DNA of 32,237 nt from Paludibacter sp. Its GTDB lineage: Bacteria > Bacteroidota > Bacteroidia > Bacteroidales > Paludibacteraceae. The DNA lies in contig JAQUWU010000049.1 in NCBI GenBank assembly GCA_028692715.1, forward strand, positions 1 to 32,237. Direction: 5' to 3'. Shown piece after piece: positions 5,389-21,681 of the stretch. The notes below the pieces were generated by a model. It worked only from the letters and a program-made list of their open reading frames with translations, ran no database searches and was not told where the DNA came from. Numbering within the stretch: the first letter of the stretch is position 1; the number at the start of each line of letters is the position of its first letter. The position numbers and the translations under genes were made by a program.

Positions 5389-8300
5389 TCACACAATTTT
5401 TTTTGATTTTTTATTCAGTCTTTCTTTAATGGCATCTACCAAATAATAAACCATTGGCACAACAAAAACAGTCAATATAAGAGATGACAATAAACCACCA
5501 ATTATGACCCATGCCAATCCGTTTTTCCACTCGCTAGCTGTACCTTTGGCTAATGCAATGGGCAACATACCAATTATCATAGAAAGCGTAGTCATCAATA
5601 TAGGACGCATACGTTCTTTACCGGCAATCAGCAATGCTTCTTTGTAATTTTTTCCTTGTGCTTTCAGTTGATTGGTAAAATCGACTATCAAAATTGCATT
5701 TTTGGTAACAAGCCCCATAAGCATGATTAATCCGAGTTGCGCAAAAAGTGTGAGGTCATTCAACGATAAGTTCAACGCCAGAAAAGCTCCGATAATCGCC
5801 ATTGGTATGGAGAATAATGCCACAAAAGGATAAATAAAATTATCGTAAAGGGCTACCATAATGAGGTAAATAAGAATAAATGAAATAAGCAGAACAGTTC
5901 CAATGGCACCAAAACTTTCATTTTGTGTTTTAATGTCACCGCCCCACGACATTTTAACGCCATCAGGCAATGGATTCGTTTTCAGTTCACTTATCACATC
6001 GTCGGCCAAGGTTCCCGAAGGTCGACCGAAGGATTCAGCTGTCAATGTTACCGAGGTTTGACGGTCTAAGCGTTCAAGCATAGAAGGTGAATTATCTTGC
6101 TTTATTTCTGCAAATTGTGATATTTCAACTGGAATATTCATCGGATTAACGACAGTTAAGCGCTTCACATCTTCATAATTTTTCCTGCTGAAATCGTCGA
6201 GCCATATTCGTACCGGAAATTCTGTTCCATTTTCGGTCAAGGTGGCATCATCGTTTCCGGTAAAGGCAGTACGTAAATTCAAACCTACATAAGCTGTGTT
6301 TAATCCCAATCGTTGCATTTTATCTTTATCCGGAATGACAATGTATTCAGGATTTCCTTCTTCAACTGACAAGCGGACATTATCAGCTCCGGGAACTGCT
6401 TCCACAATTGCTTTCAGCTCTTTCCCTGTTTTCATCACCTGGTTCAAATCATTTCCGCTTAAAGTAATTTTAATTGGGGCTGATTTTGGTAATAAACCAA
6501 TTACAGCCATCGAGAAGTTAATGCTTGGAAATTCCTTTTTCATTTCTACACGAAGCGACTTCATAAAATCCAGCGTTTTAATATCTCTTTCCTTATCGGG
6601 TTTTAACTGTATGGTAAATTCCGATTTATTGGCAGCTCCAACACCCAGACTTCCAATGCCTGTGCTTGGTCCCGCCACATTACTAAATAGTGTGGCTACT
6701 TCGGGTTGTTGTAAAATGAAGTCTTCAATTTTTTGCGAAATAATATTATTCTGCTGAACAGTAATTGATTTGTCGTATTCCAGATTTAATCGGAACTTTC
6801 CCTGATCGCCGGTCGACATCATTTCTTTTCCTATAATTCCTTGTTTCATTACAGCACCCGTGAATACCAACAGAAAAATTACAAACAATGTAAAAAGAAT
6901 TTTATGACTCAGTACCCATTGTAATAAACGTCCATACCATGCAATAAATTTATCCAATTGACGCTCGAACCATAATAAAAATCGGTTCATAAAATTGGTA
7001 GGATGGAGATGTTCTTTTTTCCCAATGCGCGAAGCCAACCAGGGTGTCAAAGTAAAACCAACCAACAAACTTGTAAGCGTTGATGTTATCACCACAATGG
7101 AGAATTGTTTGAGCATGTCGGCAACAAAGACCTGCAAAAATAAAATAGGTAAAAACACCACTACATCCACCAAAGTTATCGAAAGGGCTGAAAATCCAAT
7201 TTCCATACGACCATCCATTGCGGCGATTCGTTTGTCTTTGCCCATGTCCAGATGGCGTTGAATATTTTCCAATACCACAATGGCATCATCCACCAGAATC
7301 CCTATAATTAAGGACATGGCGAGTAAGGTCATCAGGTTCAATGTGAAACCCAGTAACCACATCACAGCAAATGCAGTGACTAAAGAAGTAGGAATGGCAA
7401 CTAAAACAATCAAAGAATTTCGATAACTTCTCAGAAATAGAAGCATTACCAACGAAACCAAAATTACCGCCAGGATCAAATCGTCTACAACAGATTTTAC
7501 AGCCGCAATGGTTTTATCGGTACTGTCATCGGCAATTATAAATTTTACATCCGACTTGGTATTTTGTTGCTCGATACTTAATAATTTTGACCGTACTAAT
7601 TTTGATACATCCACAGCATTTGCATCTCCTTGTTTTTTCAACATAAGTCCAATACCCGACTTTCCGTTGAACCTACTAACAGAACTTATCTCCTTTACGC
7701 CGTCGATAACAGCAGCTACATCTTTGACATAAACCGGACTGCCGGGCATGGGCATGGCAATTTGAACATTCATAATGTCATTTATATCAGCAAATTTTCC
7801 GGTAAGTCGAACCGAATTATTTTCTTTGCCGGTAAGCACTTTACCAGCCGGAATGTCAATTCCAGAACGATTAATAGCTTCAACAACCTGATAAAGCGAA
7901 ATTTTATAGAGTTTAAGCTTATCCTGATTTACCTTTACCTGAATTTCACGTTCTTCACCGCCTATCATCGTAATTTCTGCTACGCCTTTCAATTGTTGAA
8001 TCTGAGGCAGATAATCATCTTTCATTTTCTGATAAAATTCAGTTTCGGGCAGATTACTGTTTGCACTTATCGAAATGATAGGCAAATCGTTAGGCGAAAC
8101 TTTGCTCATTACAGGATTCAAAATGTCTTTTGGTAAATCTTTCTTGATATTATCTATATAGAGCTGAGCCTCTTGCATGGTTCTGTTTAAATCAGTTCCA
8201 TATTTCAGATTGACAATAATAACAGATGCATTGGGCATTGATTTCGTTTCCAAATAATCAACTCCTTCCAAATTCGACAAGGCTTCCTCAATTTTTCGCG

Positions 8301-8490
8301 ATACCGATGTTTCAACTTCCTGAGGTTCTGCACCCGGATAGCCTGTTTTAATAACAACTACAGGTTGATTAAAATCGGGTAATAGTTCGTAACTCAGACT
8401 ATTAAATCCAATAATTCCTAATAAAGTCAGCACACTGAAAAGCACGATTATCAGTGACGGGCGGTCTATGGCAATTTTTGTTATATTCAT
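5389..8490 (-). CDS. RND multidrug efflux pump, inner-membrane permease
   Basis: At 1033 residues this has the length and architecture of AcrB-type (HAE1) transporters. TM1 (about 10-30) is followed by a periplasmic porter domain, a block of helices from about 335 to 485, a second porter domain and the final helices (about 865-1025). The proton-relay residues are visible: D401-D402 in ILVDDAIVVLEN and K930 in GLVTKNAILIVDF, equivalent to AcrB D407/D408 and K940. The protein uses the proton gradient to expel drugs, bile-type detergents or lipids through the TolC channel. Which substrate cannot be read from the sequence. HAE1 rather than metal-exporting CusA is favoured by the double Asp. It lies 8 bp from the adaptor gene. 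Confidence 0.96.
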   Translation of the reverse strand: MNITKIAIDRPSLIIVLFSVLTLLGIIGFNSLSYELLPDFNQPVVVIKTGYPGAEPQEVETSVSRKIEEALSNLEGVDYLETKSMPNASVIIVNLKYGTDLNRTMQEAQLYIDNIKKDLPKDILNPVMSKVSPNDLPIISISANSNLPETEFYQKMKDDYLPQIQQLKGVAEITMIGGEEREIQVKVNQDKLKLYKISLYQVVEAINRSGIDIPAGKVLTGKENNSVRLTGKFADINDIMNVQIAMPMPGSPVYVKDVAAVIDGVKEISSVSRFNGKSGIGLMLKKQGDANAVDVSKLVRSKLLSIEQQNTKSDVKFIIADDSTDKTIAAVKSVVDDLILAVILVSLVMLLFLRSYRNSLIVLVAIPTSLVTAFAVMWLLGFTLNLMTLLAMSLIIGILVDDAIVVLENIQRHLDMGKDKRIAAMDGRMEIGFSALSITLVDVVVFLPILFLQVFVADMLKQFSIVVITSTLTSLLVGFTLTPWLASRIGKKEHLHPTNFMNRFLLWFERQLDKFIAWYGRLLQWVLSHKILFTLFVIFLLVFTGAVMKQGIIGKEMMSTGDQGKFRLNLEYDKSITVQQNNIISQKIEDFILQQPEVATLFSNVAGPSTGIGSLGVGAANKSEFTIQLKPDKERDIKTLDFMKSLRVEMKKEFPSINFSMAVIGLLPKSAPIKITLSGNDLNQVMKTGKELKAIVEAVPGADNVRLSVEEGNPEYIVIPDKDKMQRLGLNTAYVGLNLRTAFTGNDDATLTENGTEFPVRIWLDDFSRKNYEDVKRLTVVNPMNIPVEISQFAEIKQDNSPSMLERLDRQTSVTLTAESFGRPSGTLADDVISELKTNPLPDGVKMSWGGDIKTQNESFGAIGTVLLISFILIYLIMVALYDNFIYPFVALFSIPMAIIGAFLALNLSLNDLTLFAQLGLIMLMGLVTKNAILIVDFTNQLKAQGKNYKEALLIAGKERMRPILMTTLSMIIGMLPIALAKGTASEWKNGLAWVIIGGLLSSLILTVFVVPMVYYLVDAIKERLNKKSKKIV

Positions 8491-8498
8491 GATTTTGT

Positions 8499-9551
8499 TT
8501 AGTTTATGGTTACATTAGCCCCTTCAAAAACATTTATAAAACCACTGGTAATCACAATGTCATTTTCGCTTAATCCGCTTGAAACAATGACTGAATTTTG
8601 AATCCGGCCTGAAATTGTAATCGTTTTTAATTTTGCTTTGCCCTGTAAAATAATATATACCTGAGGTTTAATGTTGGAACCTACTATAGCCGAAGCCGGT
8701 ATAATAATCTGTTTTTCTGAACTATTATTTTTCAAATTTGCTTTCCCAAACATTCCTGATTTAATTTTTAAGTCAGCTGTGTTTCGAACGGTGAACTGAA
8801 TTGGATAACTATTACCCATATTAGCTTTACTGCCAATCATGTTTATTTTACCCGATAATTCTGTTTCAGGAAATGCATCAGCTTGAAGTGCATATTCCTG
8901 ATTCATTTTGAATTTATTTAATTCATTTTCAGGCACATTCACTGTAAATTTCAACTGTGAGATATCCGTGATTTGAAACAAAGGAACACCCGGTGCTGCA
9001 AATGCTCCCTCTTCGGTAAACTTAGCGGTGACTATACCGGCAAATGGTGCTTTGATGGTTGTTTTATTAATTTGTTCCAATGTAGTAGCTCGTTGCACTT
9101 TAGCCGATTTTAGGGCTAATTCTGTTTTTTCTAATTGTACACCTTGAATGGCATCTGCTTGAGCCAGAATCTTGTAACGTCTCACGTCATTTTCCAAACC
9201 TTCAATTTGTATATCTATTGTTTGTAATTGCAGTTTCAGTAAGGAGTTATCCAATTGAATTAGTGACTTCCCTTTACTCACTACACTCCCCGCATCAACA
9301 AATAGGGTATTAATCTTGCCTTGAATATCAGCACTGATTTTTGTTTCTTTATTAGGTTCGAAAGTACCCGTATAGGAATCAGTATTTACAACATTTTCAA
9401 GTTTCAATGTATCTGCCTGCACATGTATCGGAAGCTCTTTATTGTACTGATACACTTTATTTTTTGTTGTTTCTTTGTTGCTTTTCAAACGAATGGCAGT
9501 AACAGCTATAATCGCCAATGCCACAACTATATATATGATATTTTTCTTCAT
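8499..9551 (-). CDS. RND efflux periplasmic adaptor (HlyD/MexA family membrane-fusion protein)
   Basis: The 350-residue adaptor has an N-terminal membrane anchor (about 4-20), then the two halves of a lipoyl/barrel-sandwich domain around a short alpha-helical hairpin. The first half is GTFEPNKETKISADIQGKI...DAGSVVSKGKSLIQLD and the second is TTIKAPFAGIVTAKFTEEGAF. A beta-barrel and a membrane-proximal domain (IIIPASAIVG...SGLSENDIVITSG) follow. No lipobox cysteine is present, so it is probably anchored by the helix. It bridges the RND pump and the TolC channel encoded on either side (gaps of 8 and 27 bp). Confidence 0.95.
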   Translation of the reverse strand: MKKNIIYIVVALAIIAVTAIRLKSNKETTKNKVYQYNKELPIHVQADTLKLENVVNTDSYTGTFEPNKETKISADIQGKINTLFVDAGSVVSKGKSLIQLDNSLLKLQLQTIDIQIEGLENDVRRYKILAQADAIQGVQLEKTELALKSAKVQRATTLEQINKTTIKAPFAGIVTAKFTEEGAFAAPGVPLFQITDISQLKFTVNVPENELNKFKMNQEYALQADAFPETELSGKINMIGSKANMGNSYPIQFTVRNTADLKIKSGMFGKANLKNNSSEKQIIIPASAIVGSNIKPQVYIILQGKAKLKTITISGRIQNSVIVSSGLSENDIVITSGFINVFEGANVTIN

Positions 9552-9578
9552 GATTTCTATTGTTATGATTATTAATTC

Positions 9579-10910
9579 TTAATTAGAAAGATTCCCGGTT
9601 AATTTCTTCAATTCCAGCTCTGCTTTTAATAACTCAACGATAGCAGACAGATAGTTTTGTTGTGATTCCCTTAATGTATTGTCGGCTAGTAGAACATCAG
9701 TCAAATTTGAAGTTCCCTGTTTCTGTTGTAAAATAGTTTGTTCATACACCGTTTGGGCTAATTTTATTTGTGCCAATGTATTCTCAACAATCAGTTGAGC
9801 TGTAATTTTTGTTCGCTTCGCATTCTCAATCAGCATAGTATTTTGTTCGGTTGCCAATGATAGTTGTAAATTATTGTTGGATATTTCCAATTTCTTTTGA
9901 TTCATCTTCCTCTGTGTTACTGTCCCATTAAACAAAGGATAATTTAATTGAACACCTACAAAACTTACGGCAAAGAACTTCAAAAAATCGTTCGGTTTTA
10001 CATCATATCCAAAGCCTGTTTGTCCGTACGTGCCATAAAGCGAAAGTGAAGGCAAACGTGAATTTTTCAAAGTGCTTAATTCACTTTTTAAAAATCTGTT
10101 TTGGGTTTCAACAAGACGTATATCCACAGATGCTTGGTTTGCATACTCACTCCTATTTTTAAATTCGATACCGGGATCTATTTCGATATCTTTACTTATA
10201 GGAATTCCCATGGAAAATTTTAGTGCATTCATAAGCTGTAGCAATTTATTTTCGACAATTTCTCTTTGTGTTTGTAATTGCGCCTTTTGTAATTGAATTT
10301 TTGTCACATCGGTTGATTTAACCATTAATTGTTCTTTCAACAGTTGCATGTTTTGGAGCAACTTTTTTGTATTCACTAAATTGCTGTCAATAAATACTAC
10401 TTGTTTTTGCAGAATCTGAACATTGTAATACAGATTCGAAATATCAAAGAATACTTGCTCTTCGGTTTTCTGTCGTTGAAGTTTACTCAAATCAGTTCCA
10501 ATTTTGGTAGTTTCCATACCTCCTAATATTTGAGCATTGAACAAGGGCATAGTGAATTGAACATTCAAATTTATGTTGTGAGGCACTCCAAATTGCGCCT
10601 CCTTAAATTGACCTGTCGGAGCTGAAGCATTAAATGTGGACAGAGGCATAAGTTGGTACGGTAAATCATAATAATACTTGTAATCCCCGTTGATATTTAC
10701 CTTCGGAATTAATCCAGCAACAGCCTCTTTGTGTCGTTGCTCACCAATCGAAATATTATTTTCACTAATCTGCAGCATTTTATTTTTCACCTGTGCCGTG
10801 TCAATGCATTGCTTTAGTGACCATGGCTGAGCTTGTGTTGGGGAAATAATTACTATTGTTAAGAGAAATAACAGTAGTCTTGGTTTTAGTTTGTGAGTAT
10901 TTACTAACAT
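9579..10910 (-). CDS. TolC-family outer-membrane efflux channel
   Basis: The 443-residue protein has a signal peptide (about 1-27, ending SPTQAQ). It then shows the repeated TolC layout of long coiled-coil helices and short beta strands: SLKQCIDTAQVKNKMLQI near the start, a matching second half, and the family C-terminal pattern QQKQGTSNLTDVLLADNTLRESQQNYL. It forms the trimeric exit duct for the RND pump encoded downstream in the same operon. It is separated from the small membrane protein gene by 16 bp. Confidence 0.95.
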   Translation of the reverse strand: MLVNTHKLKPRLLLFLLTIVIISPTQAQPWSLKQCIDTAQVKNKMLQISENNISIGEQRHKEAVAGLIPKVNINGDYKYYYDLPYQLMPLSTFNASAPTGQFKEAQFGVPHNINLNVQFTMPLFNAQILGGMETTKIGTDLSKLQRQKTEEQVFFDISNLYYNVQILQKQVVFIDSNLVNTKKLLQNMQLLKEQLMVKSTDVTKIQLQKAQLQTQREIVENKLLQLMNALKFSMGIPISKDIEIDPGIEFKNRSEYANQASVDIRLVETQNRFLKSELSTLKNSRLPSLSLYGTYGQTGFGYDVKPNDFLKFFAVSFVGVQLNYPLFNGTVTQRKMNQKKLEISNNNLQLSLATEQNTMLIENAKRTKITAQLIVENTLAQIKLAQTVYEQTILQQKQGTSNLTDVLLADNTLRESQQNYLSAIVELLKAELELKKLTGNLSN

Positions 10911-10926
10911 AACAGTATAAAAAATT

Positions 10927-11325
10927 TTAGTTTATAGTTTTTCCTTTTCTTGAAAATAAAAAATAAGCAATTGCAGCAAAAACAAGTGTAAACGGAATTC
11001 TAAAGATCATAGCTCCAATAGTTTTCGTTTCGTAAATACCTCCCGCACTGATATAAAAAATAAATCCGATAAGTGCAATGGATAGAATTGAAGCAGAAAT
11101 GCCGAGGAGTATTGTTGTCCATTTTTGTGCTCTGGCAAATCCGTATGCAGCAGCCAAGAACAACAAACTGCTGATCAAATTTGCCCATACAATAAACAGT
11201 ACATAATTTCCTTGCTTGGCTCTTATCCCAAATAAATCAAAAATTACGGACGTACTCAGAAATAAAGTGAGCAGTCCAAATGCAATCAAAACTGTTGCTG
11301 AAAAATAGGAAAATATTTTTTTCAT
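10927..11325 (-). CDS. Small four-helix membrane protein of unknown function in the efflux operon
   Basis: I do not recognise this 132-residue protein. It has four predicted membrane helices (about 8-28, 44-64, 70-93 and 105-125) with short loops and a basic tail (SRKGKTIN). No catalytic motif is visible. It follows the TetR gene with no intergenic base and precedes the TolC gene by 16 bp, so it is co-expressed with the pump and may be a membrane accessory. Nothing in the sequence proves that. Confidence 0.75.
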   Translation of the reverse strand: MKKIFSYFSATVLIAFGLLTLFLSTSVIFDLFGIRAKQGNYVLFIVWANLISSLLFLAAAYGFARAQKWTTILLGISASILSIALIGFIFYISAGGIYETKTIGAMIFRIPFTLVFAAIAYFLFSRKGKTIN

Positions 11326-11907
11326 TTAGGTTATTTTTATAAGTGTAAGTATTGAATCTACCATTTTGTTGCCGCTTTCTTTCAAATCAAATTCAAAGTT
11401 GAACAGTCTCCATTTGAACATTTGCAGTTTAAAAGTTCCCATAACAATATGCACAAGATCTTCATTAGCAATGGCATTTGTAAAAATATTCTTTTGTTGG
11501 CCGTCTGTAATTATCGGCATTAGGTGTTTCATCAACACAGCCATAAGTTTAAGAATAACTTCATTGATTCGTTGGCTTTCTTCCATTAGTCCATCCGAAA
11601 AAACCGCAACTACAAAGTGAGAATTTTTACTAAAAAACCTAAATTGTTCCTGAAACATAGCCCTGAAATTTTCTTCTGGATTTACGGTTTTTTGAATACC
11701 CGATAATCGATCATCTATATTCTCAGCTAAATAATTAAGCATGGCGAGAATTATTTCTTCCTTACTCGAGAAATGCCGATATATAGCACTTTCCGAAAAA
11801 TTCATTTCTTTTGCCAAATTTTTTATTGTCAATCCATTTATGCCCGAAGTTGTGAGTATTCTACTGGTGGCTTCAATAATTTCTAATTGGCGGGGTTTAA
11901 TATCCAT
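11326..11907 (-). CDS. TetR/AcrR-family transcriptional regulator of the efflux operon
   Basis: The 193-residue protein has the TetR N-terminal helix-turn-helix (about 8-55; GLTIKNLAKEMNFSESAIYRHF then SSKEEI). A helical ligand-binding C-terminal domain without recognisable specificity follows. TetR proteins usually repress their own operon until a pump substrate binds. It lies in the same operon as the pump, between a cupin gene (48 bp upstream) and the small membrane protein gene (0 bp). The inverted repeat at 12333-12348, on top of the operon's -7 box, is its likely operator. Confidence 0.93.
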   Translation of the reverse strand: MDIKPRQLEIIEATSRILTTSGINGLTIKNLAKEMNFSESAIYRHFSSKEEIILAMLNYLAENIDDRLSGIQKTVNPEENFRAMFQEQFRFFSKNSHFVVAVFSDGLMEESQRINEVILKLMAVLMKHLMPIITDGQQKNIFTNAIANEDLVHIVMGTFKLQMFKWRLFNFEFDLKESGNKMVDSILTLIKIT

Positions 11908-12897: not shown

Positions 12898-13833
12898 ATG
12901 GAAATCACCACTGAAAGTTGGGCTATTATTATTAATCCGAAATCGGGAAAAAGAAAATTTCGTCAACAACGTAAATACCTATTTTTATCGCTAAAAAATG
13001 TAGGTATTCAATTTGAACACCGAATAACTCAATTTGCCGGTCATGCCACTCAAATAGCTAAGTTACAAGCTGAGAAAGGATACAAAAACTTCGCAGTAGT
13101 TGGTGGCGATGGAACTGTTAGCGAAGTGATTAATGGCATCTTTATTGCCAACATTGAGAGTACTTCTGACTTAAAAATTGCACTGATTCCACGTGGCACC
13201 GGAAATGACTGGGGACGATTTTGGGGCTTAACCCCTGATTACAAACATTCTATTGATGTTTTTTTAAAGCAGAAATGTCAATCAATTGATATCGGAAAAG
13301 TAAATTTTACATTGGAAGGAGTAAAACAATCTCATTTTTTTATTAATTCAGTAGGATTTGGATTGGATGCTGCTGTAGTGGATATTACACACCGGTTTAA
13401 AAGATATTTTGGAAGTCATTCTTTTCTTTATTCATTGGCTTTACTCAGTGCTGTTTTTAGTTACCGGGCACATAAAATCATTTTAAATTCAAAAGAAAAA
13501 ACCATTTCGGATAATATGTTTACAATGAATGTTGCCAATGGTTGTTATAGCGGTGGTGGCATGAAACAAAACCCCAAAGCTTTACCCTACGATGGATTGT
13601 TAGATGTAATGTTGGCAAAAAAGCCTACATTTTTAGATATCATCGGGGCTTTATTAAGGGTTTTCAACGGAAGATTATTAGAGCATCCCATTATTGAGTC
13701 CTTTCAAACACAGAGTTTAAGTATTCAAAGTGAGAAGATTACTATAATGGAAGCCGATGGAATAATCGTAAACGGGACTTCACCATACAAAATCAGCATA
13801 ATCCCAAATGCTATTCAAATGATTGTTCCCTGA
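12898..13833 (+). CDS. Diacylglycerol kinase-like / YegS-type lipid kinase
   Basis: The 311-residue protein has the DAGK catalytic fold. It shows NPKSGKRK (13-20), the nucleotide-binding GGDGT (69-73, in VVGGDGTVSEVINGI), RGTGNDWGR (99-107) and NSVGFGLDA further on. Enzymes of this family phosphorylate diacylglycerol or related long-chain lipids with ATP and usually help recycle lipid or build glycolipid. Which lipid is used here is not evident. It is cytosolic and membrane-associated, with no signal peptide. The start is the ATG at 12898, preceded by TTAGGA. Its last 19 bp overlap the end of the opposite-strand nucleotidyltransferase gene. Confidence 0.93.
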   Translation: MEITTESWAIIINPKSGKRKFRQQRKYLFLSLKNVGIQFEHRITQFAGHATQIAKLQAEKGYKNFAVVGGDGTVSEVINGIFIANIESTSDLKIALIPRGTGNDWGRFWGLTPDYKHSIDVFLKQKCQSIDIGKVNFTLEGVKQSHFFINSVGFGLDAAVVDITHRFKRYFGSHSFLYSLALLSAVFSYRAHKIILNSKEKTISDNMFTMNVANGCYSGGGMKQNPKALPYDGLLDVMLAKKPTFLDIIGALLRVFNGRLLEHPIIESFQTQSLSIQSEKITIMEADGIIVNGTSPYKISIIPNAIQMIVP

Positions 13834-14555
13834 ACGACAAATTTTTCAGCTTCGTCCAACACATCTAATTTTCCTACATCCAACATTTTATAATCGGAAG
13901 GGACAAAACCGGAAATAATTTGATTTTTCATGCTCGACAAATAAAAATCCATGATTGGGAATTTTTCGTCAAATTCACTCATGAATTCAAATACGGTTGG
14001 TGAAAGCACTTGAATACCCGAAAAAGCAAGTTTATTGTACAATTCAGGCTTTTTGAAACCTACAGGTTTTGTTTCACCTGTTTTTTCATTTATCCAACCT
14101 TTTAATTGTAAATCGTCGTTAAATAATAAGTATCTGAAGGTATCTCTTTTACTCACAACCAATGTTGCCAATGAATTTGTTCGTAAATGTTGATGATACA
14201 AAGCATTAATATCAAGATTGGAAAGGATATCCACATTATGCACCAAAAAAGGTTTCCCATCATTGAAAAACGCAGCAGCTTTCCGAATTCCCCCACCTGT
14301 ATCCAATAATAAATCACGTTCATCTGAAACTTCTATACGAATACCAAAATTATTATTCGCTTTCAGAAAATCAATTATTAAATCAGGGAAATGATGAATA
14401 TTAACAATTATTTCATCAAAACCCGATGATTTAAGTTTCGATATCACATGCTCTAATAATGGCTTTCCGGCAATAGGGATTAGTGCTTTTGGCAAACAAT
14501 CAGTCAACGGTTTTAATCGGGTACCGAGTCCTGCCGCAAATATCATTGCTTTCAT
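13815..14555 (-). CDS. Sugar-1-phosphate nucleotidyltransferase (MurU-like)
   Basis: The 246-residue protein is a GT-A-fold nucleotidyltransferase. It has the signature AAGLGTRL (7-14) with PK at 22-23, LLDTGGGIRKA (83-93) and metal-binding HNVD (106-109). Relatives attach a nucleotide to sugar-1-phosphates. Length, the LDTGGGI motif and the neighbouring kinase point to the MurU branch, which converts MurNAc-1-phosphate to UDP-MurNAc in peptidoglycan recycling. Mannose-1-phosphate guanylyltransferase activity is the main alternative. The gene starts 1 bp after the kinase-RapZ gene, so the two are coupled. Its 3' end overlaps the convergent lipid kinase gene by 19 bp. Confidence 0.85.
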   Translation of the reverse strand: MKAMIFAAGLGTRLKPLTDCLPKALIPIAGKPLLEHVISKLKSSGFDEIIVNIHHFPDLIIDFLKANNNFGIRIEVSDERDLLLDTGGGIRKAAAFFNDGKPFLVHNVDILSNLDINALYHQHLRTNSLATLVVSKRDTFRYLLFNDDLQLKGWINEKTGETKPVGFKKPELYNKLAFSGIQVLSPTVFEFMSEFDEKFPIMDFYLSSMKNQIISGFVPSDYKMLDVGKLDVLDEAEKFVVQGTII

Positions 14556-14556
14556 A

Positions 14557-15981
14557 TTACTTGTTTACAAAATTGGTTTCTATATTCTGTTCTCGGTGAA
14601 TCAATTGCACTTCCACACCAAATTTTTCATTAATATGTTCGGCAGTTTTTTGAGCTGAATATACCGATCTATGCTGTCCACCTGTACATCCAAAACTAAT
14701 CATAAGATTTGTAAACCCTCTATCTTTATAACGTTTAACCGAAGCATCCACCATTTCGAAGGCATGTTCGAGAAAATGAAGAATTTCGCCATCTTCTTCC
14801 AAAAACTGTATTACCGATTCATCTAAACCTGTAGATTGTGCATATCGCTCATATTTTCCGGGATTATTGACAGCACGACAATCAAAAACAAACCCTCCAC
14901 CATTCCCTGAATCATCCTGAGGAATCCCTTTTTTATAGGAAAAACTATATATTTTCACAATCAAAGGTTTATGCACCGAGACTTCACGGAATTGCTTCAA
15001 TTCGGTCATTTGTTTTAAAATTGTCAACAAATACGGATATTCAGAAGTTTCATTTTTCAGAATAGATCGAAGATTTTCGAGCGCATAAGGGATACTCTGT
15101 AAAAAATGAGGTTTTTTCTCAAAATAACCGCGAAAACCGTAAGCACCCAGGACTTGCAGGGTGCGGAATAAAACAAAATGCTTCAGCTGTTCACGGAATT
15201 TAATTTCATCAATCGGCATTAAGATTTTTAATGCATCGATATATGTTTGAAGCAGATTTTCACGTAGTTCAGCATTGTATTGAGCTTTTGCCTGCCAAAG
15301 GAATGATGCCACATCATAATAAAGTGGTCCCTTCCGGCCTCCCTGAAAATCGATAAAATAAGGTTTATCATCTTTGATCATCACATTTCTACTTTGGAAA
15401 TCGCGATACATAAATGTGTTCGTTTTCGATTGCAAAAGGATTTCTGATAATTTTGAAAAATCATCTTCCAGTTTATTTTCCTGAAAATCAAGCCCGGTCG
15501 ATTTCAAAAAACAATACTTAAAATAGTTCAAATCCCATAATATGGATCGTTCGTTAAATTCCGGTTGAGGGTAACAAACTGAAAAATCAAAATCTTTTGC
15601 TCCCAACACCTGAACGGAAGGTAGCATACGCATTGTTTTTCGCAACATTTCTTTTTCAGCTTCGTAAAAAACGCCGGTTTTTCGACCTTCAGCAATAAAA
15701 TCGAAAAGCAGGACATTTCCTAAATCTTCCTGAATATAAAATCGTCCATCTGCGGTTCTAGCTAAAAATTTCGGAACAGGTAAACCTTGTTTTTCAAAAT
15801 GCAATGCCATTTCAATAAATGCATGATTTTCTTCTATCGAAGTTCCTTCCACACCAATAATAGAATGATTTTTACTTTCCAAACGAAAATAACGTCGGTT
15901 TGAACCCGAAGCAGAAAGTTCTTCTTTACTTAGTAACTTCTCGTTGGTATATTGTTTAAAAAGAGATTCTAATTCATTCAT
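14557..15981 (-). CDS. Phosphotransferase (AmgK-like) fused to a RapZ C-terminal domain
   Basis: This 474-residue fusion has two parts. Residues 1-330 are an aminoglycoside-phosphotransferase-type kinase with catalytic loop Y192-R-D194-FQSRN199 and metal-binding D211-FQ; the usual loop His is Tyr. The DFQ and GP-YYD pattern resembles AmgK, which phosphorylates MurNAc/GlcNAc at C1. Residues 341-474 match the C-terminal half of RapZ, including GIP, FVFDCR, TGLD and the signature GCTGGQHRSV (431-440). In E. coli that half binds glucosamine-6-phosphate and the GlmZ RNA system. The ATPase half of RapZ is absent. With the adjacent MurU-like gene (1 bp away) the pair looks like cell-wall sugar salvage with an amino-sugar-sensing domain. 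The domain calls are strong; the pathway is inferred. Confidence 0.88.
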   Translation of the reverse strand: MNELESLFKQYTNEKLLSKEELSASGSNRRYFRLESKNHSIIGVEGTSIEENHAFIEMALHFEKQGLPVPKFLARTADGRFYIQEDLGNVLLFDFIAEGRKTGVFYEAEKEMLRKTMRMLPSVQVLGAKDFDFSVCYPQPEFNERSILWDLNYFKYCFLKSTGLDFQENKLEDDFSKLSEILLQSKTNTFMYRDFQSRNVMIKDDKPYFIDFQGGRKGPLYYDVASFLWQAKAQYNAELRENLLQTYIDALKILMPIDEIKFREQLKHFVLFRTLQVLGAYGFRGYFEKKPHFLQSIPYALENLRSILKNETSEYPYLLTILKQMTELKQFREVSVHKPLIVKIYSFSYKKGIPQDDSGNGGGFVFDCRAVNNPGKYERYAQSTGLDESVIQFLEEDGEILHFLEHAFEMVDASVKRYKDRGFTNLMISFGCTGGQHRSVYSAQKTAEHINEKFGVEVQLIHREQNIETNFVNK

Positions 15982-17981
<2,000 letters not shown>

Positions 17982-18062
17982 ATTTGTAGAATAAATAAAA
18001 ATATAACAATTAAATTAATGAAGCCAAATTTCTCAAATAGAGATTAGGATAAAATTAAAAAT

Positions 18063-19979
18063 ATGGATAAAAATACGATTATTGGATTTGTCATCATTGC
18101 GTTAATAATTATAGGTTTTTCGCAATTAAACAAACCCAGCGAGGAGGAACTTGCTATACAGAAGCGCTACAACGATTCTATTGCTTTGGTTGAACAAAAC
18201 AGAATAGAATCTGAAATAGCAATAAATAATGCAAAAGCTTCTGTAATTGCCGATTCAACAATTAATACCGACACAACAAATACTCAAGTAACATTATCTG
18301 ATGCTTTTGGTGATTTTAGTGTAGCTGCAAAAGGCGAAGAAAAAATCTACACCCTCGAAAACGAATTGATTAGTTTAAATTTCAACAGCAAAGGTGGTCG
18401 AATTTATTCTGCTGAGTTGAAAGACTATAAAACACATGATTCTTTACCGCTTTTTTTGTTTGATGGTGCTGAAAGTTCGATGGGATTTACACTCGTAACA
18501 AACAATAACCGTGTAATAAACACTTCCGATTTATATTTCGAACCAGTTTCAGATGTAAGTACCGATTCCAAAGGAAATAAAAGTCTCACTTTACGCTTGA
18601 AAACAACAGGTGAAGGTTATATGGATTTTGTGTACACATTGCCGGCTAACAATTACATGCTTAGCTTTGATATCAAATCATCCGGCATGAATAAAGTTAT
18701 GCCATTAGGGACTAATTTCCTCGAAATGCAATGGGCATCAAAAGTTCGTCAGCAGGAAAAAGGTCGCAAGTTTGAAGACCGTTACTCTACAGTCGAATTC
18801 AAATATCTTGCTGATGACATCGAAAAATTAAGCGAGAGTAAAAACGATGAAAAGAAAGCCGATAGCAAAGTAAAATGGATTGCTTTTAAAGATCAATTTT
18901 TTAGCAGTATTCTTATTGCAAACGATGCAATGAATTCAACTACACTAAAAAGTGAAGTCAAACCTGAGGATTCAGGTTATTTGAAATCATATAGTGCCAA
19001 TATGACTGTTGCTTACGACCCAACAGGAAAAGAGCCAACCGGATTCCGCATGTATTTCGGACCAAATCAATATAAAATTCTTTCCGCTTACGACAAGGGT
19101 ATAGATTCAGACAAAAAATTACGTCTTAATAAATTAATTCCTCTTGGATGGGGAATCTTTGGTTGGGTAAATCAATTTGCCATCATTCCCATGTTCAATC
19201 TGTTCAGTCGGTTTATGGGAAATTTCGGTCTAATTATTTTATTAATGACTGTTGTTATAAAATTGGTATTATTTCCATTAACTTACAAATCCTACATTTC
19301 AAGCGCAAAAATGAGGGTATTAAAACCTGAGATTGATGAAATAAACGCACGAATACCTGCTGACAAAGCAGCAGAAAGACAGAAAGCAACCATGGATTTG
19401 TATAGCAAAGTTGGCGTAAGTCCAATGAGCGGTTGCTTACCGACAATGCTTCAAATGCCAATTTTGTTTGCACTATTCAGCTTTTTCCCTTCGGCTATTG
19501 AATTGCGTCAGGAAAGTTTCTTATGGGCAACCGACCTTTCTACTTATGATTCTATTCTAAGTTGGACTACGTATATTCCAATCATTACGCCCTATTTCGG
19601 AAACCACCTTAGTTTATTCTGTCTACTTATGACTGTAACCAGTATTTTATCTACAAAACTGAATATGGCCACTCAACCTACCAACGATGCTATGGGTGGA
19701 AATATGATGAAATGGATGATGTACCTGATGCCTGTAATGTTTATGTTTATGTTTAATAGTTATGCTTCCGGCTTGAGTTATTACTATTTCATTTCAACTT
19801 TAATTACTGTTATTCAGACTTATGCTATTCGTGCAACAGTAGATGAAAATAAATTATTAGCAGAACTTCATGCAAAAAGAAATGCAAAAAAAGGAACAAC
19901 TAAAAAGAAAAGCGGTTTTATGGAACGCCTGGAAAAAATGCAACAGGAACAACAAAAAGCGTTGAAAAATAAAAAATAA
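18063..19979 (+). CDS. yidC: Membrane protein insertase YidC
   Basis: The 638-residue insertase places proteins in the inner membrane alone or with SecYEG. An N-terminal signal-anchor helix (about 4-22; IIGFVIIALIIIGFSQL) is followed by a long periplasmic beta domain (about 80-350), as in Gram-negative YidC. The Oxa1-type core then has FGLIILLMTVVIKLVLFPLT, with K400 in the groove position normally held by Arg/Lys, then SPMSGCLPTMLQMPILFALF and a membrane-embedded C-terminal helix. The tail (from about 605) is very basic, as expected for ribosome contact. A hairpin terminator follows at 20000-20043. Confidence 0.97.
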   Translation: MDKNTIIGFVIIALIIIGFSQLNKPSEEELAIQKRYNDSIALVEQNRIESEIAINNAKASVIADSTINTDTTNTQVTLSDAFGDFSVAAKGEEKIYTLENELISLNFNSKGGRIYSAELKDYKTHDSLPLFLFDGAESSMGFTLVTNNNRVINTSDLYFEPVSDVSTDSKGNKSLTLRLKTTGEGYMDFVYTLPANNYMLSFDIKSSGMNKVMPLGTNFLEMQWASKVRQQEKGRKFEDRYSTVEFKYLADDIEKLSESKNDEKKADSKVKWIAFKDQFFSSILIANDAMNSTTLKSEVKPEDSGYLKSYSANMTVAYDPTGKEPTGFRMYFGPNQYKILSAYDKGIDSDKKLRLNKLIPLGWGIFGWVNQFAIIPMFNLFSRFMGNFGLIILLMTVVIKLVLFPLTYKSYISSAKMRVLKPEIDEINARIPADKAAERQKATMDLYSKVGVSPMSGCLPTMLQMPILFALFSFFPSAIELRQESFLWATDLSTYDSILSWTTYIPIITPYFGNHLSLFCLLMTVTSILSTKLNMATQPTNDAMGGNMMKWMMYLMPVMFMFMFNSYASGLSYYYFISTLITVIQTYAIRATVDENKLLAELHAKRNAKKGTTKKKSGFMERLEKMQQEQQKALKNKK

Positions 19980-19999
19980 ATCAACAGAACTAAAACAAT

Positions 20000-20045
20000 A
20001 AAAGCGTAAATTGCAAGTTGATAACTATGCGCTTTACGCTTTTTT
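20000..20045 (+). terminator. Rho-independent terminator after yidC
   Basis: AAAAGCGTAAA (20000-20010) pairs with TTTACGCTTTT (20033-20043) over 11 bp and is followed by more T residues. It lies 21 bp past the yidC stop and ends only 24 nt before the gldB start codon. Confidence 0.75.
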
Positions 20046-20068
20046 GTGTAAGTTTTAATCTTATAAAT

Positions 20069-21079
20069 ATGAATAGAATATTCGTCTTTGGAATTTCAAT
20101 CATTTCAATATTACTTTTCAATTCATGTGGAAAATCGAAACGATTCGAAATTGACACAACAAAAAACACCTACAAGGTGAAAATTCATCGTTTTGACAAG
20201 GATATAATTCAATTAGACACAACTCAACTGGCAACATCTGTAGATAGCTTATATACACATTACAAAGAGTTTCTGCCCGTTTTTAATGACAACATATTAG
20301 GAATTACAGATTCAGACACGCTCGCAATACAAAACCAACTGTTGAATTTCCTTTCTGATTCCACTTTTAGTCCGGTAAACAGAAAAGTGCTGAAAACATT
20401 CGAAGATATTTCAGACATCGAAAATACCGTTTCAGAATCATTTACCTACATTCATCATTATTTCCCGGAAGTAACATTACCGGAAGTCTATTTTTTTGTT
20501 TCCGGCTTTAATCGTTCAGTAATTTTAAACGATAAATTTATAGCTTTCGGCACAGATATGTATCTTGGCAGCAATTACGAACCTTACAAAGAACTTACAT
20601 ATAAATACATGTTGAACAATATGCGTAGAGAATGTATTGCTACAGATATCGTTTCAACTACGCTTTTCAGAATGTTTATAATGAATAGCTCTGACAACAG
20701 ATTAATCGACAATATGATATTTCGTGGAAAAGTAATGTATTTATTGTCAGTGTTTATGCCAAACGAAAAACAGGAAGATTTAATGGGTTATACTCCTGAA
20801 CAATGGAGTTGGAGTACAAAATTCGAAAAAGATATATGGATGACAATTATCGATAAAAAAGATTTATTCTCAACCGACATGTTGCTTATAAGAAAATATA
20901 TGAATGAAGCACCATTTACAGCACCTATCTCACAGGAGTCGCCGGGAAGATTGGGGACATGGATTGGATGGAGAATAGTTGAGAGCTATATGAATAAAAA
21001 TACAACGCTTAGCCTTAAAGAGTTGATGGATGAGAATAATGCACAAAAGATTTTAGAAAATTCGGGTTATAAACCCTGA
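20069..21079 (+). CDS. gldB: Gliding-motility-type lipoprotein GldB
   Basis: Read from the ATG at 20069 this is a 336-residue lipoprotein. Its hydrophobic signal (about 3-17) ends at the lipidation cysteine C20 (LLFNSC). A longer in-frame start at 20018 is unlikely because it would translate through the yidC terminator. GldB-family features include KIHRFDKDI near the front and the C-terminal block SPGRLGTWIGWRIVESYM. GldB is needed for gliding in Flavobacterium, but homologues occur in non-gliding Bacteroidota, where the role is unclear. The protein probably sits on the periplasmic side of a membrane. No dedicated promoter is visible in the 24 bp after the terminator. Confidence 0.85.
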   Translation: MNRIFVFGISIISILLFNSCGKSKRFEIDTTKNTYKVKIHRFDKDIIQLDTTQLATSVDSLYTHYKEFLPVFNDNILGITDSDTLAIQNQLLNFLSDSTFSPVNRKVLKTFEDISDIENTVSESFTYIHHYFPEVTLPEVYFFVSGFNRSVILNDKFIAFGTDMYLGSNYEPYKELTYKYMLNNMRRECIATDIVSTTLFRMFIMNSSDNRLIDNMIFRGKVMYLLSVFMPNEKQEDLMGYTPEQWSWSTKFEKDIWMTIIDKKDLFSTDMLLIRKYMNEAPFTAPISQESPGRLGTWIGWRIVESYMNKNTTLSLKELMDENNAQKILENSGYKP

Positions 21080-21088
21080 CAACAAAAA

Positions 21089-21118
21089 AGACCTGTTCAA
21101 ATTAAATTGAACAGGTCT
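21089..21118. terminator. Bidirectional terminator between gldB and the ferredoxin gene
   Basis: AGACCTGTTCAA (21089-21100) and TTGAACAGGTCT (21107-21118) form a perfect 12-bp stem with a 6-nt loop. On the minus strand it is followed by CTTTTTTG, making a good terminator for the ferredoxin gene. On the plus strand the following T-run is weaker. Confidence 0.8.
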
Positions 21119-21141
21119 GATTATTCTTTACAGTTTGACAA

Positions 21142-21309
21142 TTATGCCGGACTGATTGCTTCTGAAGGACAAACATCAGCGCAAGTTCCACAGTCAGTGC
21201 AAACATCAGCATCAATTACATAAATATCACCTTCTGTAATTGCTTCCACAGGACATTCGCTGATACATGATCCGCAAGCAATACAATCTTCTGAAATAAC
21301 GTAAGCCAT
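21142..21309 (-). CDS. Small 2[4Fe-4S] ferredoxin
   Basis: Translation of the minus strand gives a 55-residue protein, MAYVISEDCIACGSC... to ...EAISPA. It has two classical cluster motifs, C9-x2-C12-x2-C15-x3-C19-P and C37-x2-C40-x2-C43-x3-C47-P. It is a clostridial-type low-potential electron carrier of ordinary length. Its partners, such as pyruvate:ferredoxin oxidoreductase, Rnf or hydrogenase, are not in the window. A -7 box TACTTTTG (21352-21345, minus) lies about 29 nt upstream of the start, and a strong terminator follows the stop. The gene is monocistronic. Its presence suggests anaerobic or microaerobic metabolism. Confidence 0.96.
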   Translation of the reverse strand: MAYVISEDCIACGSCISECPVEAITEGDIYVIDADVCTDCGTCADVCPSEAISPA

Positions 21310-21644
21310 TTTCTTTAATTTTTTGTTAGTACTAATTAGTTTTGCAAAAGTATAACTTTTTCCAAATCTAAAAAATTTTTTTGATTGTTTTTTTTGAATT
21401 AATTCTCAATACTTCTACATTTCTGTTGATTTTGAATTATTTTTAATAATTTCTTCCTAATCAAAAGTTCAAATAGTCTGCATCTAATAATTTATCATCA
21501 AAGTCTACTAAATCTGTAACAACTAAAAATGAAATTTGTTGTCAATTAAACCGTTAAAAGAAATTACAAATCCTCTAAAACAGTAAAAGAAATTAAAAAC
21601 ATATTTTTTGCAAACTCATTATTGTGCAATAATACTAATTTTAG
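21310..21644. other. Divergent intergenic region between ferredoxin and porT
   Basis: No gene is seen. It holds the ferredoxin -7 box (21345-21352, minus strand). Near porT is an imperfect direct repeat: TAAACCGTTAAAAGAAATTA (21547-21566) and TAAAACAGTAAAAGAAATTA (21576-21595), 17 of 20 identical with starts 29 nt apart. The remainder is AT-rich without clear structure. Confidence 0.4.
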
Positions 21645-21652
21645 TACGTTTG
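21621..21652 (+). promoter_or_regulatory. Promoter of porT
   Basis: ATTG (21621-21624), a 20-nt spacer and TACGTTTG (21645-21652) fit the Bacteroidota consensus. Transcription would begin near 21659, about 23 nt before the ATG at 21682. This rules out the longer reading frame that starts at 21622. Confidence 0.6.
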
Positions 21653-21681
21653 TATTTTTAAAAACAACGCCCAATACGATT

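What the first reader, a model, noticed from the sequence alone, without database searches (positions are those of the whole stretch)
13815..15981. Sugar kinase fused to the GlcN6P-sensing half of RapZ, coupled to a MurU-like nucleotidyltransferase
The sequence shows an APH-type kinase (Y192-R-D, D211-FQ) joined to a RapZ C-terminal domain with GCTGGQHRSV intact, and a nucleotidyltransferase gene 1 bp downstream. Known: AmgK and MurU salvage MurNAc past fosfomycin-blocked steps, and in E. coli the RapZ C-terminal half binds glucosamine-6-phosphate and controls GlmS through small RNAs. Inference: here the sensor is welded to the salvage kinase, so amino-sugar level may set kinase activity directly or through RNA binding, without the RapZ ATPase half. 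Similar fusions may occur in related genomes, but I know of no worked-out mechanism.
Basis: partly seen in the sequence, partly recalled or inferred. Interest (0 to 1): 0.75.

Follow-up and report, generated by a model that had tools for sequence, protein, structure and literature searches.

The report
Cell-wall sugar kinase fused to RapZ domain
In this Bacteroidales bacterium the kinase thought to recycle a cell-wall sugar is fused to the metabolite-binding half of the regulator RapZ, and in related bacteria the two parts and a third enzyme travel together so faithfully that the RapZ half looks like a working part of cell-wall recycling.

Summary
Window 14557-15981 (-) encodes an AmgK-like kinase (K) fused to a RapZ C-terminal domain (R, PF22740, 114.9 bits). 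A MurU-like nucleotidyltransferase (M) starts one base downstream. No RapZ N-terminal half is found in the genome.

The fusion is widespread. Of 395 phylum genomes 49 have R. All 49 have strong K and M; one other has a strong K. K and R are fused in 37, adjacent genes in 8, apart in 4. One MAG fuses all three (L117).

The RNA-adaptor reading is disfavoured: four of seven named RNA-contact positions, the basic tail and H190 are changed. The CxxGxxRS loop is invariant in 128 of 128 domains that reach it; a 2020 paper already likened it to the tyrosine-phosphatase loop. AnmK without MurQ, where MurNAc-6-phosphate needs another exit, occurs in 15 of 31 R+ AnmK+ genomes and in none of 89 R- AnmK+ genomes tested, of 240.

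Best reading: a MurNAc-salvage module in which R handles a sugar phosphate, perhaps as MurNAc-6P phosphatase. Against: 18 of 49 R+ genomes, this one included, lack AnmK. GlcN6P binding is unproven.

The parts
14557..15981 (-). Fusion gene, 474 aa: AmgK-like APH-fold kinase (K) + RapZ C-terminal domain (R)
   Evidence: ORF; Pfam; NCBIfam; AlphaFold pLDDT 90.8, pTM 0.69; Foldseek (3csv, corramycin kinase and other APH-fold kinases; RapZ 5o5q rank 23)
15238..15918 (-). APH kinase domain, residues 22-248
   Evidence: PF01636 51.7 bits, cut-off 23.2; R193, D194, N199, D211, Q213 invariant in the 25-row alignment
15400..15408 (-). Catalytic-loop motif Y192-R193-D194
   Evidence: role recalled from the APH fold
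15343..15351 (-). D211-F-Q213 motif (metal binding in the APH fold, recalled)
14587..14961 (-). RapZ C-terminal domain (R), residues 341-465
   Evidence: PF22740 114.9 bits; model of the domain alone matches RapZ-CTD 5o5s TM 0.80
14893..14907 (-). Residues 359-363 (GNGGG) in front of strand FVFDCR; G361-363 invariant in 129 of 129, no counterpart in the aligned E. coli RapZ
14875..14883 (-). D367 and R369, equivalents of E. coli RapZ D182 and R184, invariant in 129 of 129
14668..14688 (-). C432-T-G-G-Q-H-R438, the CX5R loop (E. coli RapZ C247-R253, malonate/sulphate pocket)
   Evidence: C, T, G, G, H, R and following S invariant in 128 of 128 domains that reach it; pocket described in PMC9841335 (passages)
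13815..14555 (-). MurU-like sugar-1-phosphate nucleotidyltransferase (M), 246 aa
   Evidence: PF00483 73.6 bits; NF045761 MurU 135.1 bits against cut-off 250; best PDB match 4y7t; K23, N107, D109, D226 invariant in 14 rows
14556..14556 (.). Single base between the stop of the fusion and the ATG of the nucleotidyltransferase gene

Best explanation
The two genes are the Bacteroidota form of the anabolic N-acetylmuramic acid (MurNAc) salvage route: K makes MurNAc-1-phosphate (AmgK step), M makes UDP-MurNAc (MurU step), and the RapZ C-terminal domain R is a near-obligatory partner of K and M that binds a sugar phosphate in its CX5R loop. Of the possible roles for R I rank a catalytic one first, and its main reaction, where AnmK is present, as MurNAc-6-phosphate -> MurNAc: the step done in Pseudomonas by the unrelated HAD phosphatase MupP, directly before AmgK. 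SHOWN here: the fusion, its spread, the close co-occurrence of K, R and M including split and unlinked forms, the invariant CX5R loop, loss of part of the RNA-contact surface, and the AnmK/MurQ pattern. INFERRED: MurNAc as substrate (about 0.85), sugar-phosphate binding at the loop (about 0.75), catalysis by R (about 0.45), MurNAc-6P as the main substrate (about 0.35). In this genome, which has MurQ and MurA but no AnmK match, MurNAc-6P could come only from another kinase, so R's job here may differ.
For: (1) Co-occurrence: 49 of 395 phylum genomes have R; all 49 have a strong K (>= 249 bits) and a strong M (>= 187 bits), while only G009 has a strong K without R and only G009 and G231 a strong M without R (bit limits set at the gap in the lists after seeing them; three of the 49 M matches, G216, G271 and G306, run over a stop codon). 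(2) R keeps company with K however it is encoded: fused 37, adjacent genes K-R-M 8, R next to M with K elsewhere 1, all apart 3; one 760-aa frame K-R-M (L117). (3) C432, T433, G434, G435, H437, R438, S439 invariant in 128 of 128; CxxGxxR[ST] is the loop of Cys-dependent tyrosine phosphatases, a likeness Khan and Goerke state for RapZ (PMC7199280, passages). [quoted passage not shown] B. subtilis YvcJ is reported to have phosphatase activity (PMC7525490, passages). (5) AnmK+ genomes without MurQ (>= 250 bits; nothing lies between 45 and 250): 15 of 31 R+ (six families) against 0 of 89 R- (89 tested of 240 R- AnmK+). (6) Of 134 genomes with any K, the 31 with AnmK all have R; of the 103 without AnmK, 18 have R. 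(7) Published: T. forsythia, without MurA/MurB, is thought to make UDP-MurNAc by AmgK and MurU (PMC7670621, passages), and E. coli expressing T. forsythia AmgK and MurU is used as the positive control for MurNAc-probe labelling (PMC13041923, passages); two Tannerella sp. MAGs here carry the fusion plus M (L089, L090).
Against: 18 of 49 R+ genomes lack AnmK, the window genome among them, and 13 of these also lack MurQ. 35 of 50 genomes holding relatives lack AnmK too (50 of the 80 loci given); of the 11 not labelled MAG or uncultured, 10 lack it and Carboxylicivirga has it (many of the 50 are MAGs and may be incomplete). There a MurNAc-6P phosphatase has no obvious substrate supply, yet R is kept. 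Over the whole sample AnmK is no commoner in R+ (31 of 49) than in R- genomes (240 of 346). E. [quoted passage not shown] Foldseek lists no PTP-type phosphatase among the 50 shown of 433 matches of the R model (an exopolyphosphatase, 7epq, stands at E 0.78, not significant), so the likeness to tyrosine phosphatases is the loop alone. A HAD MupP elsewhere in the AnmK+ MurQ- genomes was not excluded. YvcJ's phosphatase activity was not mapped to its C-terminal half in what I read. The counts are not corrected for kinship: 8 of the 15 AnmK+ MurQ- genomes are one family and 84 of the 103 AnmK- K genomes are another.
Confidence: 0.45

Rival explanations
1. R is a non-catalytic metabolite sensor (GlcN6P, UDP-GlcNAc or a muramyl phosphate) that sets K activity allosterically, in cis in the fusion and in trans where split: the first reader's idea without RNA.
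For: E. coli RapZ-CTD binds GlcN6P and B. subtilis YvcJ binds UDP-GlcNAc (PMC7199280; PMC7525490; passages). The phosphate pocket T248-G249-H252-R253 is invariant and W191 has become R/K in 128 of 129. R184 and K170 equivalents stay basic (129/129 and 118/129). It explains why R is kept when AnmK is absent.
Against: H190 of the pocket is Gly in 129 of 129. Invariance of the Cys in 128 of 128 is more than an anion site needs. A stand-alone unlinked R (L066, L067, L070) would have to find K in trans. The triple fusion (L117) suggests three working parts.
Confidence: 0.33
2. R is mainly a scaffold: a dimerisation or tetramerisation module, or a channel partner, holding K and M together.
For: RapZ-CTD can form a dimer independently (PMC7199280, passage); K, R and M lie together in 38 of 49 loci and R with M in one more.
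Against: A scaffold would not need C432, H437, R438, D367 and R369 invariant across 128-129 domains in a family with mean column identity 52% (23 rows), nor persist as an unlinked gene in L066, L067 and L070.
Confidence: 0.12
3. R is an RNA-binding adaptor that targets an mRNA or small RNA of amino-sugar metabolism for decay, as RapZ does for GlmZ.
For: The CTD is the main RNA-contacting half of E. coli RapZ (PMC9841335); K170, R184 and R196 equivalents are mostly basic (118, 129 and 110 of 129).
Against: K194, R211, R238, K251 and K270 equivalents are not basic in most or all rows; the window protein also has Ala at R196 and one basic residue after R463. RapZ N-half not found in 50 of 50. No Rfam match in the window at gathering scores. 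Published: T. forsythia lacks glmS (PMC5790795, passages), so the E. coli target is missing in a relative of the R-bearing Tannerella MAGs (T. forsythia's own R was not checked).
Confidence: 0.05
4. K and M are not MurNAc enzymes but a kinase/nucleotidyltransferase pair for another substrate, such as a LicA/LicC-type choline or a mannose/heptose pathway.
For: Both score below the AmgK and MurU equivalog cut-offs; a choline-phosphate cytidylyltransferase (1jyk) is among 67 PDB sequence matches of M.
Against: Among NCBIfam models K's best kinase match is AmgK, and M's two best are MurU models (135 and 102 bits); the AnmK/MurQ pattern ties the module to muramic acid.
Confidence: 0.08

Closest known systems
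AmgK-MurU(-MupP) anabolic MurNAc salvage of Pseudomonas and Caulobacter
   Same: Kinase and uridylyltransferase of the same families; adjacent genes (amgK pp0405 beside murU pp0406 in P. putida, PMC5371407, passage)
   Different: The Pseudomonas phosphatase MupP is a HAD protein; here a RapZ C-terminal domain is fused to the kinase, and the scores lie far below the equivalog cut-offs
Tannerella forsythia AmgK/MurU
   Same: Same phylum; thought to supply UDP-MurNAc in a bacterium without MurA/MurB (PMC7670621, passages); two Tannerella sp. MAGs carry the K-R fusion plus M
   Different: Whether the tested T. forsythia AmgK carries R was not seen in the passages I could read; the 2021 review and the 2022 and 2024 probe papers are not held
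E. coli RapZ C-terminal domain (5o5s)
   Same: Fold TM 0.80, 32% identity, CTGGxHRS loop, D182 and R184 equivalents
   Different: No ATPase half, H190 is Gly, GGG stretch, four of seven RNA-contact positions changed; partner is a sugar kinase
B. subtilis YvcJ and Xanthomonas HpaP (RapZ homologues with reported phosphatase activity)
   Same: YvcJ: RapZ homologue, phosphatase activity reported, RNA-binding tail also not conserved (PMC7525490, passages). HpaP: ATPase and phosphatase activity per a title in that paper's reference list; that it is a RapZ homologue is recalled
   Different: YvcJ has the nucleotide-binding half; the site of the phosphatase activity was not seen here (original papers not held)

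Membership tests
AmgK (N-acetylmuramate/N-acetylglucosamine anomeric kinase) | Score over the curated equivalog cut-off (NF045759, 550 bits) | tested here: not met
   62.9 bits, still the best kinase model
AmgK (N-acetylmuramate/N-acetylglucosamine anomeric kinase) | APH-fold kinase with the catalytic RD and D(F)Q motifs, next to a murU-like gene | tested here: met
   PF01636 over cut-off; R193, D194, D211, Q213 invariant in 25 rows; M one base downstream
AmgK (N-acetylmuramate/N-acetylglucosamine anomeric kinase) | Phosphorylates MurNAc or GlcNAc at C1 | not testable with these tools
   needs enzyme assay
MurU (MurNAc-alpha-1-P uridylyltransferase) | Score over the equivalog cut-off (NF045761, 250 bits) | tested here: not met
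   135.1 bits, best of 39 families
MurU (MurNAc-alpha-1-P uridylyltransferase) | Minimal sugar nucleotidyltransferase with catalytic Lys, Asn, Asp, Asp | tested here: met
   K23, N107, D109, D226 invariant in 14 rows; K23, N107, D109 align to K23, N105, D107 of 4y7t. That 4y7t is P. putida MurU, and the catalytic role of these residues, is recalled
RapZ (RNase adapter) | N-terminal P-loop ATPase half (PF03668) | tested here: not met
   no match in this genome nor in 50 of 50 genomes tested
RapZ (RNase adapter) | C-terminal domain PF22740 with CTGGxHRS loop | tested here: met
   114.9 bits; loop in 128 of 128
RapZ (RNase adapter) | Basic RNA-contact residues and basic C-terminal tail | tested here: not met
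   window keeps a basic residue at K170, R184 and K194 but not at R196, R211, R238, K251, K270, K281, R282, K283
RapZ (RNase adapter) | GlcN6P binding | not testable with these tools
   pocket partly kept, H190 replaced
Cys-dependent protein tyrosine phosphatase | CX5R[ST] loop between a strand and a helix | tested here: met
   C432-R438-S439; strand 425-432 then helix 438-454 in the model
Cys-dependent protein tyrosine phosphatase | Overall PTP fold | tested here: not met
   all 17 matches at E <= 0.001 are RapZ; no PTP among the 50 listed of 433
MupP (MurNAc-6P phosphatase) | HAD-fold phosphatase | tested here: not met
   R has the RapZ-CTD fold; any likeness would be of function only
MupP (MurNAc-6P phosphatase) | Co-occurs with AmgK; present where MurNAc-6P is made but MurQ is missing | tested here: inconclusive
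   the 15 AnmK+ MurQ- genomes found all have R, but R also occurs in 18 AnmK- genomes

The most novel reading that the evidence does not exclude
The RapZ C-terminal domain began as, or still is, a cysteine-dependent sugar-6-phosphate phosphatase. In Bacteroidota, Calditrichota and some Acidobacteriota it is the missing MurNAc-6P phosphatase of the MurNAc salvage route, fused between or beside AmgK and MurU as three consecutive enzymes, and the RNA-binding sensor of E. coli is a later reuse of that active site.
Probability: 0.33. Interest if true: 0.82.

Novelty: new variant of a known kind. Interest (0 to 1): 0.6.

Why it matters
RapZ is known as an RNA adaptor in E. coli, and what its C-terminal half does in other lineages is open. 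Here that half occurs without the ATPase half and without part of the RNA-binding surface, tied to two enzymes of one pathway. That gives a clean system in which to ask whether its phosphatase-like loop is catalytic. It could also fill an open step of MurNAc recycling in Bacteroidota, which include gut commensals and the MurNAc-dependent Tannerella.

Tried and rejected
RNA-adaptor reading: set aside on residue changes, no N-half and no Rfam match at gathering scores. Simple 'AnmK feeds R' reading: R+ genomes have AnmK in 31 of 49, R- in 240 of 346, so no positive link overall; kept only in the narrower form (AnmK without MurQ seen only with R; AnmK+ K genomes always with R). HAD phosphatase in the operon: the gene after M in three family-f6 loci is PF03641 (LOG-like); of ten neighbours scanned from seven loci none hits a HAD family and two have no match. 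PTP family membership: rejected on fold. Neighbours of unlinked R: an MFS transporter in L070 (scanned), an ORF of the same size and place in L066 (not scanned), an endonuclease I gene in L067; no conclusion. MurA absence as a natural experiment: 147 of 149 genomes of the order match MurA (142 over the cut-off), as do 4 of 4 genomes of named loci; the two without a match (G410, 96% complete, and G454, 70%) were not followed up, and T. forsythia itself was not examined. A guessed DNA pattern gave nothing; a promoter scan of 15900-16400 found 5 sites against 2.1 expected, not used. Print searches: 'RapZ' with 'Bacteroides' gave one paper, on E. coli phage resistance; 'RapZ','AmgK','MupP' two at a time gave 13, none holding RapZ; a mixed search with Bacteroidetes/Bacteroidota/Flavobacter was swamped (12,045 papers; the 10 listed hold no RapZ). 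I found no paper describing the fusion, within these searches of an open-access library only.
Full report
WHAT IS THERE. The span 13815-15981 holds two minus-strand genes with one base between them. The upstream gene (14557-15981) encodes 474 residues: an APH-fold kinase (PF01636, residues 22-248) followed by a RapZ C-terminal domain (PF22740, residues 341-465, 114.9 bits against a cut-off of 27). The downstream gene (13815-14555) encodes a small sugar nucleotidyltransferase whose best model is MurU. The full fusion is predicted with mean pLDDT 90.8 and pTM 0.69, the R domain alone with pLDDT 92.7. Foldseek gives the R model 17 matches at E <= 0.001, all RapZ chains (5o5s TM 0.80, 32% identity), and matches the full model to APH-fold kinases such as 3csv and the corramycin kinase, with RapZ at rank 23.

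HOW ORDINARY THE FUSION IS. Of the 80, 78 are K-R fusions (L145 cut by its contig end), one is a triple K-R-M frame (L117) and one is split (L155). They include Bacteroides timonensis, Parabacteroides chinchillae, Phocaeicola plebeius, Hoylesella, Muribaculum, Carboxylicivirga, an Ignavibacteriales MAG, Calditrichota and Acidobacteriota MAGs; the nearest is a Paludibacter sp. MAG at 78% identity. M (or a frame matching it) was found in the fetched stretch of 60 of the 78 fusions, in two of them (L101, L130) on the other strand; 3 of the 18 without it have too little sequence downstream. So the fusion is a common architecture, not a curiosity of this genome. A survey of 395 genomes of the phylum gave R in 49.

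THE THREE PARTS TRAVEL TOGETHER. All 49 R+ genomes have a strong K (>= 249 bits) and a strong M (>= 187 bits); among the other 346, one (G009) has a strong K and two (G009, G231) a strong M. I set these limits after seeing the lists, at the gap that follows (next K 147 bits, next M 148 bits). Three of the 49 M matches (G216, G271, G306) run over a stop codon. In the 49 loci K and R are one frame in 37, adjacent separate genes followed by M in 8, R next to M with K elsewhere in 1, and all apart in 3; M lies in the fetched neighbourhood (up to 5 kb each side, less at contig ends) of 39 of 49. In one MAG (L117, water-buffalo colon) K, R and M form a single 760-residue frame. On a quick tree of 125 kinases the split state needs three changes. 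A further 84 genomes, all of one family (f19), have a weaker K (81-147 bits) and no R; in the three pairs of rows that I compared (G044, G048, G117) M lies beside K.

R IS NOT A WHOLE RAPZ AND PROBABLY NOT AN RNA ADAPTOR. No RapZ N-terminal half was found in this genome or in 50 of 50 genomes tested, the 49 R+ and G009. Seven E. coli residues are named as the basic RNA-contacting pattern (PMC9841335, passages). Of the 129 R domains (49 + 80 loci, 128 different; L050 and L147 look like the same genome) most keep a basic residue at K170, R184 and R196 (118, 129 and 110) but not at K194 (35), R211 (16), R238 (0 of 128) or K251 (8 of 128); K270 (0 of 128) and the rest of the basic tail motif given in PMC7525490 are also mostly lost, though R277 is basic in 84 of 128. 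The tail is likewise not conserved in YvcJ, so its loss alone is not special. Pocket residue H190 is Gly in all 129, while its neighbour W191 is Arg or Lys in 128. A GGG stretch (361-363) with no counterpart in the E. coli alignment is invariant. So the pocket still looks made for a phosphate but has been rebuilt; GlcN6P as its ligand is an open question.

THE LOOP. C432-T-G-G-x-H-R438-S is invariant in 128 of 128 domains that reach it; the 129th is cut by a contig end. It fits CxxGxxR[ST], the loop of cysteine-dependent tyrosine phosphatases. I noted this before meeting it in print: Khan and Goerke (PMC7199280, passages) state the likeness and suggest that RapZ may hydrolyse GlcN6P. The 2022 structure paper reports that C247S is inactive and that a crystal with GlcN6P shows what is likely a transformed product, and YvcJ is reported to have phosphatase activity (PMC7525490, passages; the original papers are not held). 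The overall fold is not that of a PTP: none stands among the 50 listed of 433 matches; an exopolyphosphatase of another fold is listed at E 0.78.

WHAT THE GENOMES SAY ABOUT FUNCTION. In Pseudomonas the salvage route runs anhydroMurNAc -AnmK-> MurNAc-6P -MupP-> MurNAc -AmgK-> MurNAc-1P -MurU-> UDP-MurNAc; the other fate of MurNAc-6P is the etherase MurQ (PMC5371407, passages). AnmK matches in 271 of 395 genomes: 31 of 49 R+ and 240 of 346 R-. For MurQ I counted matches of at least 250 bits; at the default E-value every genome gives some weak match, but none lies between 45 and 250 bits. Among AnmK+ genomes MurQ is missing in 15 of 31 R+ genomes, from six families, and in 0 of 89 R- genomes tested (9, 80, out of 240). 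Fisher's test gives 6e-11, uncorrected for kinship; 8 of the 15 are one family, and one AnmK+ R+ genome (G216) is counted on a weak match (1.2e-10). So the module seems to provide an exit for MurNAc-6P, and something must dephosphorylate it; R is the one uncharacterised part of the module. Also, among 134 genomes with any K, the 31 with AnmK all carry R, while 18 of 103 without AnmK do; 84 of those 103 are family f19, which has no row among the 271 AnmK matches.

WHAT SPEAKS AGAINST. The same data hold the main objection: 18 R+ genomes, among them this one, have no AnmK match, and 13 of them have no MurQ either. 35 of 50 genomes of relatives that I gave the search (of 80 loci) also lack AnmK, among them 10 of the 11 not labelled MAG or uncultured. 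R is retained there. Either MurNAc-6P arises in another way, or R acts on another sugar phosphate, or R regulates. T. forsythia is a published parallel: it uses GlcNAc-anhydroMurNAc although no AnmK is predicted, by an unexplored route (PMC7670621, passages). E. coli, which has RapZ, is held likely to lack a MurNAc-6P phosphatase. I therefore hold the catalytic reading at about 0.45 and the sensor reading at 0.33.

VERDICT. New variant of a known kind (AmgK-MurU salvage with a RapZ C-terminal domain).

Noticed in passing
window 13815-13833: The 3' ends of the MurU-like gene (-) and a YegS/DAGK-like lipid kinase gene 12898-13833 (+) overlap by 19 bases on opposite strands.
   Followed up: no
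L117:5001-7283: A 760-residue single frame K-R-M in a Bacteroidaceae MAG: kinase, RapZ C-domain and MurU-like enzyme in one protein. From one MAG contig; not seen in a second genome.
   Followed up: partly
L049:3972-5396 (G031): K and R are separate frames three bases apart in G031, while a species of the same genus (G124, L048) has them fused.
   Followed up: no
L070:3661-4938 and L066:3648-4928: In two genomes of one genus where R lies apart from K and M, a frame of 425-426 residues (MFS transporter by Pfam in L070; L066 not scanned) follows R by 32-36 bases on the same strand.
   Followed up: partly
phylum survey, family f19 (84 genomes) and G009: K without R; none has an AnmK match, and the three f19 genomes tested and G009 have no strong MurQ.
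   Followed up: partly
L083, L085, L088, L096, L098, L113, L118, L126, L128, L140: None of these ten K-R Bacteroidales genomes has an AnmK match, whereas the control Bacteroides ihuae has AnmK and MurQ but no R: how such species handle anhydroMurNAc is unexplained. Some K-R MAGs, such as L090, do have AnmK.
   Followed up: partly
genome handle G410 (same order): A 5.7-Mb genome, 96% complete, with no MurA match; whether it carries the K-R-M module was not tested.
   Followed up: no
window 5389-11907: A 1033-aa ORF, a 350-aa ORF, a TolC-like protein, a 132-aa ORF and a TetR-type regulator in a row on the minus strand, the layout of an efflux operon; of these the 132-aa ORF (no match), the TolC-like and the TetR-like genes were scanned.
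   Followed up: no
window 16329-22374: CTP synthase, YidC, GldB and PorT/SprT genes in a row on the plus strand, pointing to a Bacteroidota genome with gliding/T9SS genes.
   Followed up: no
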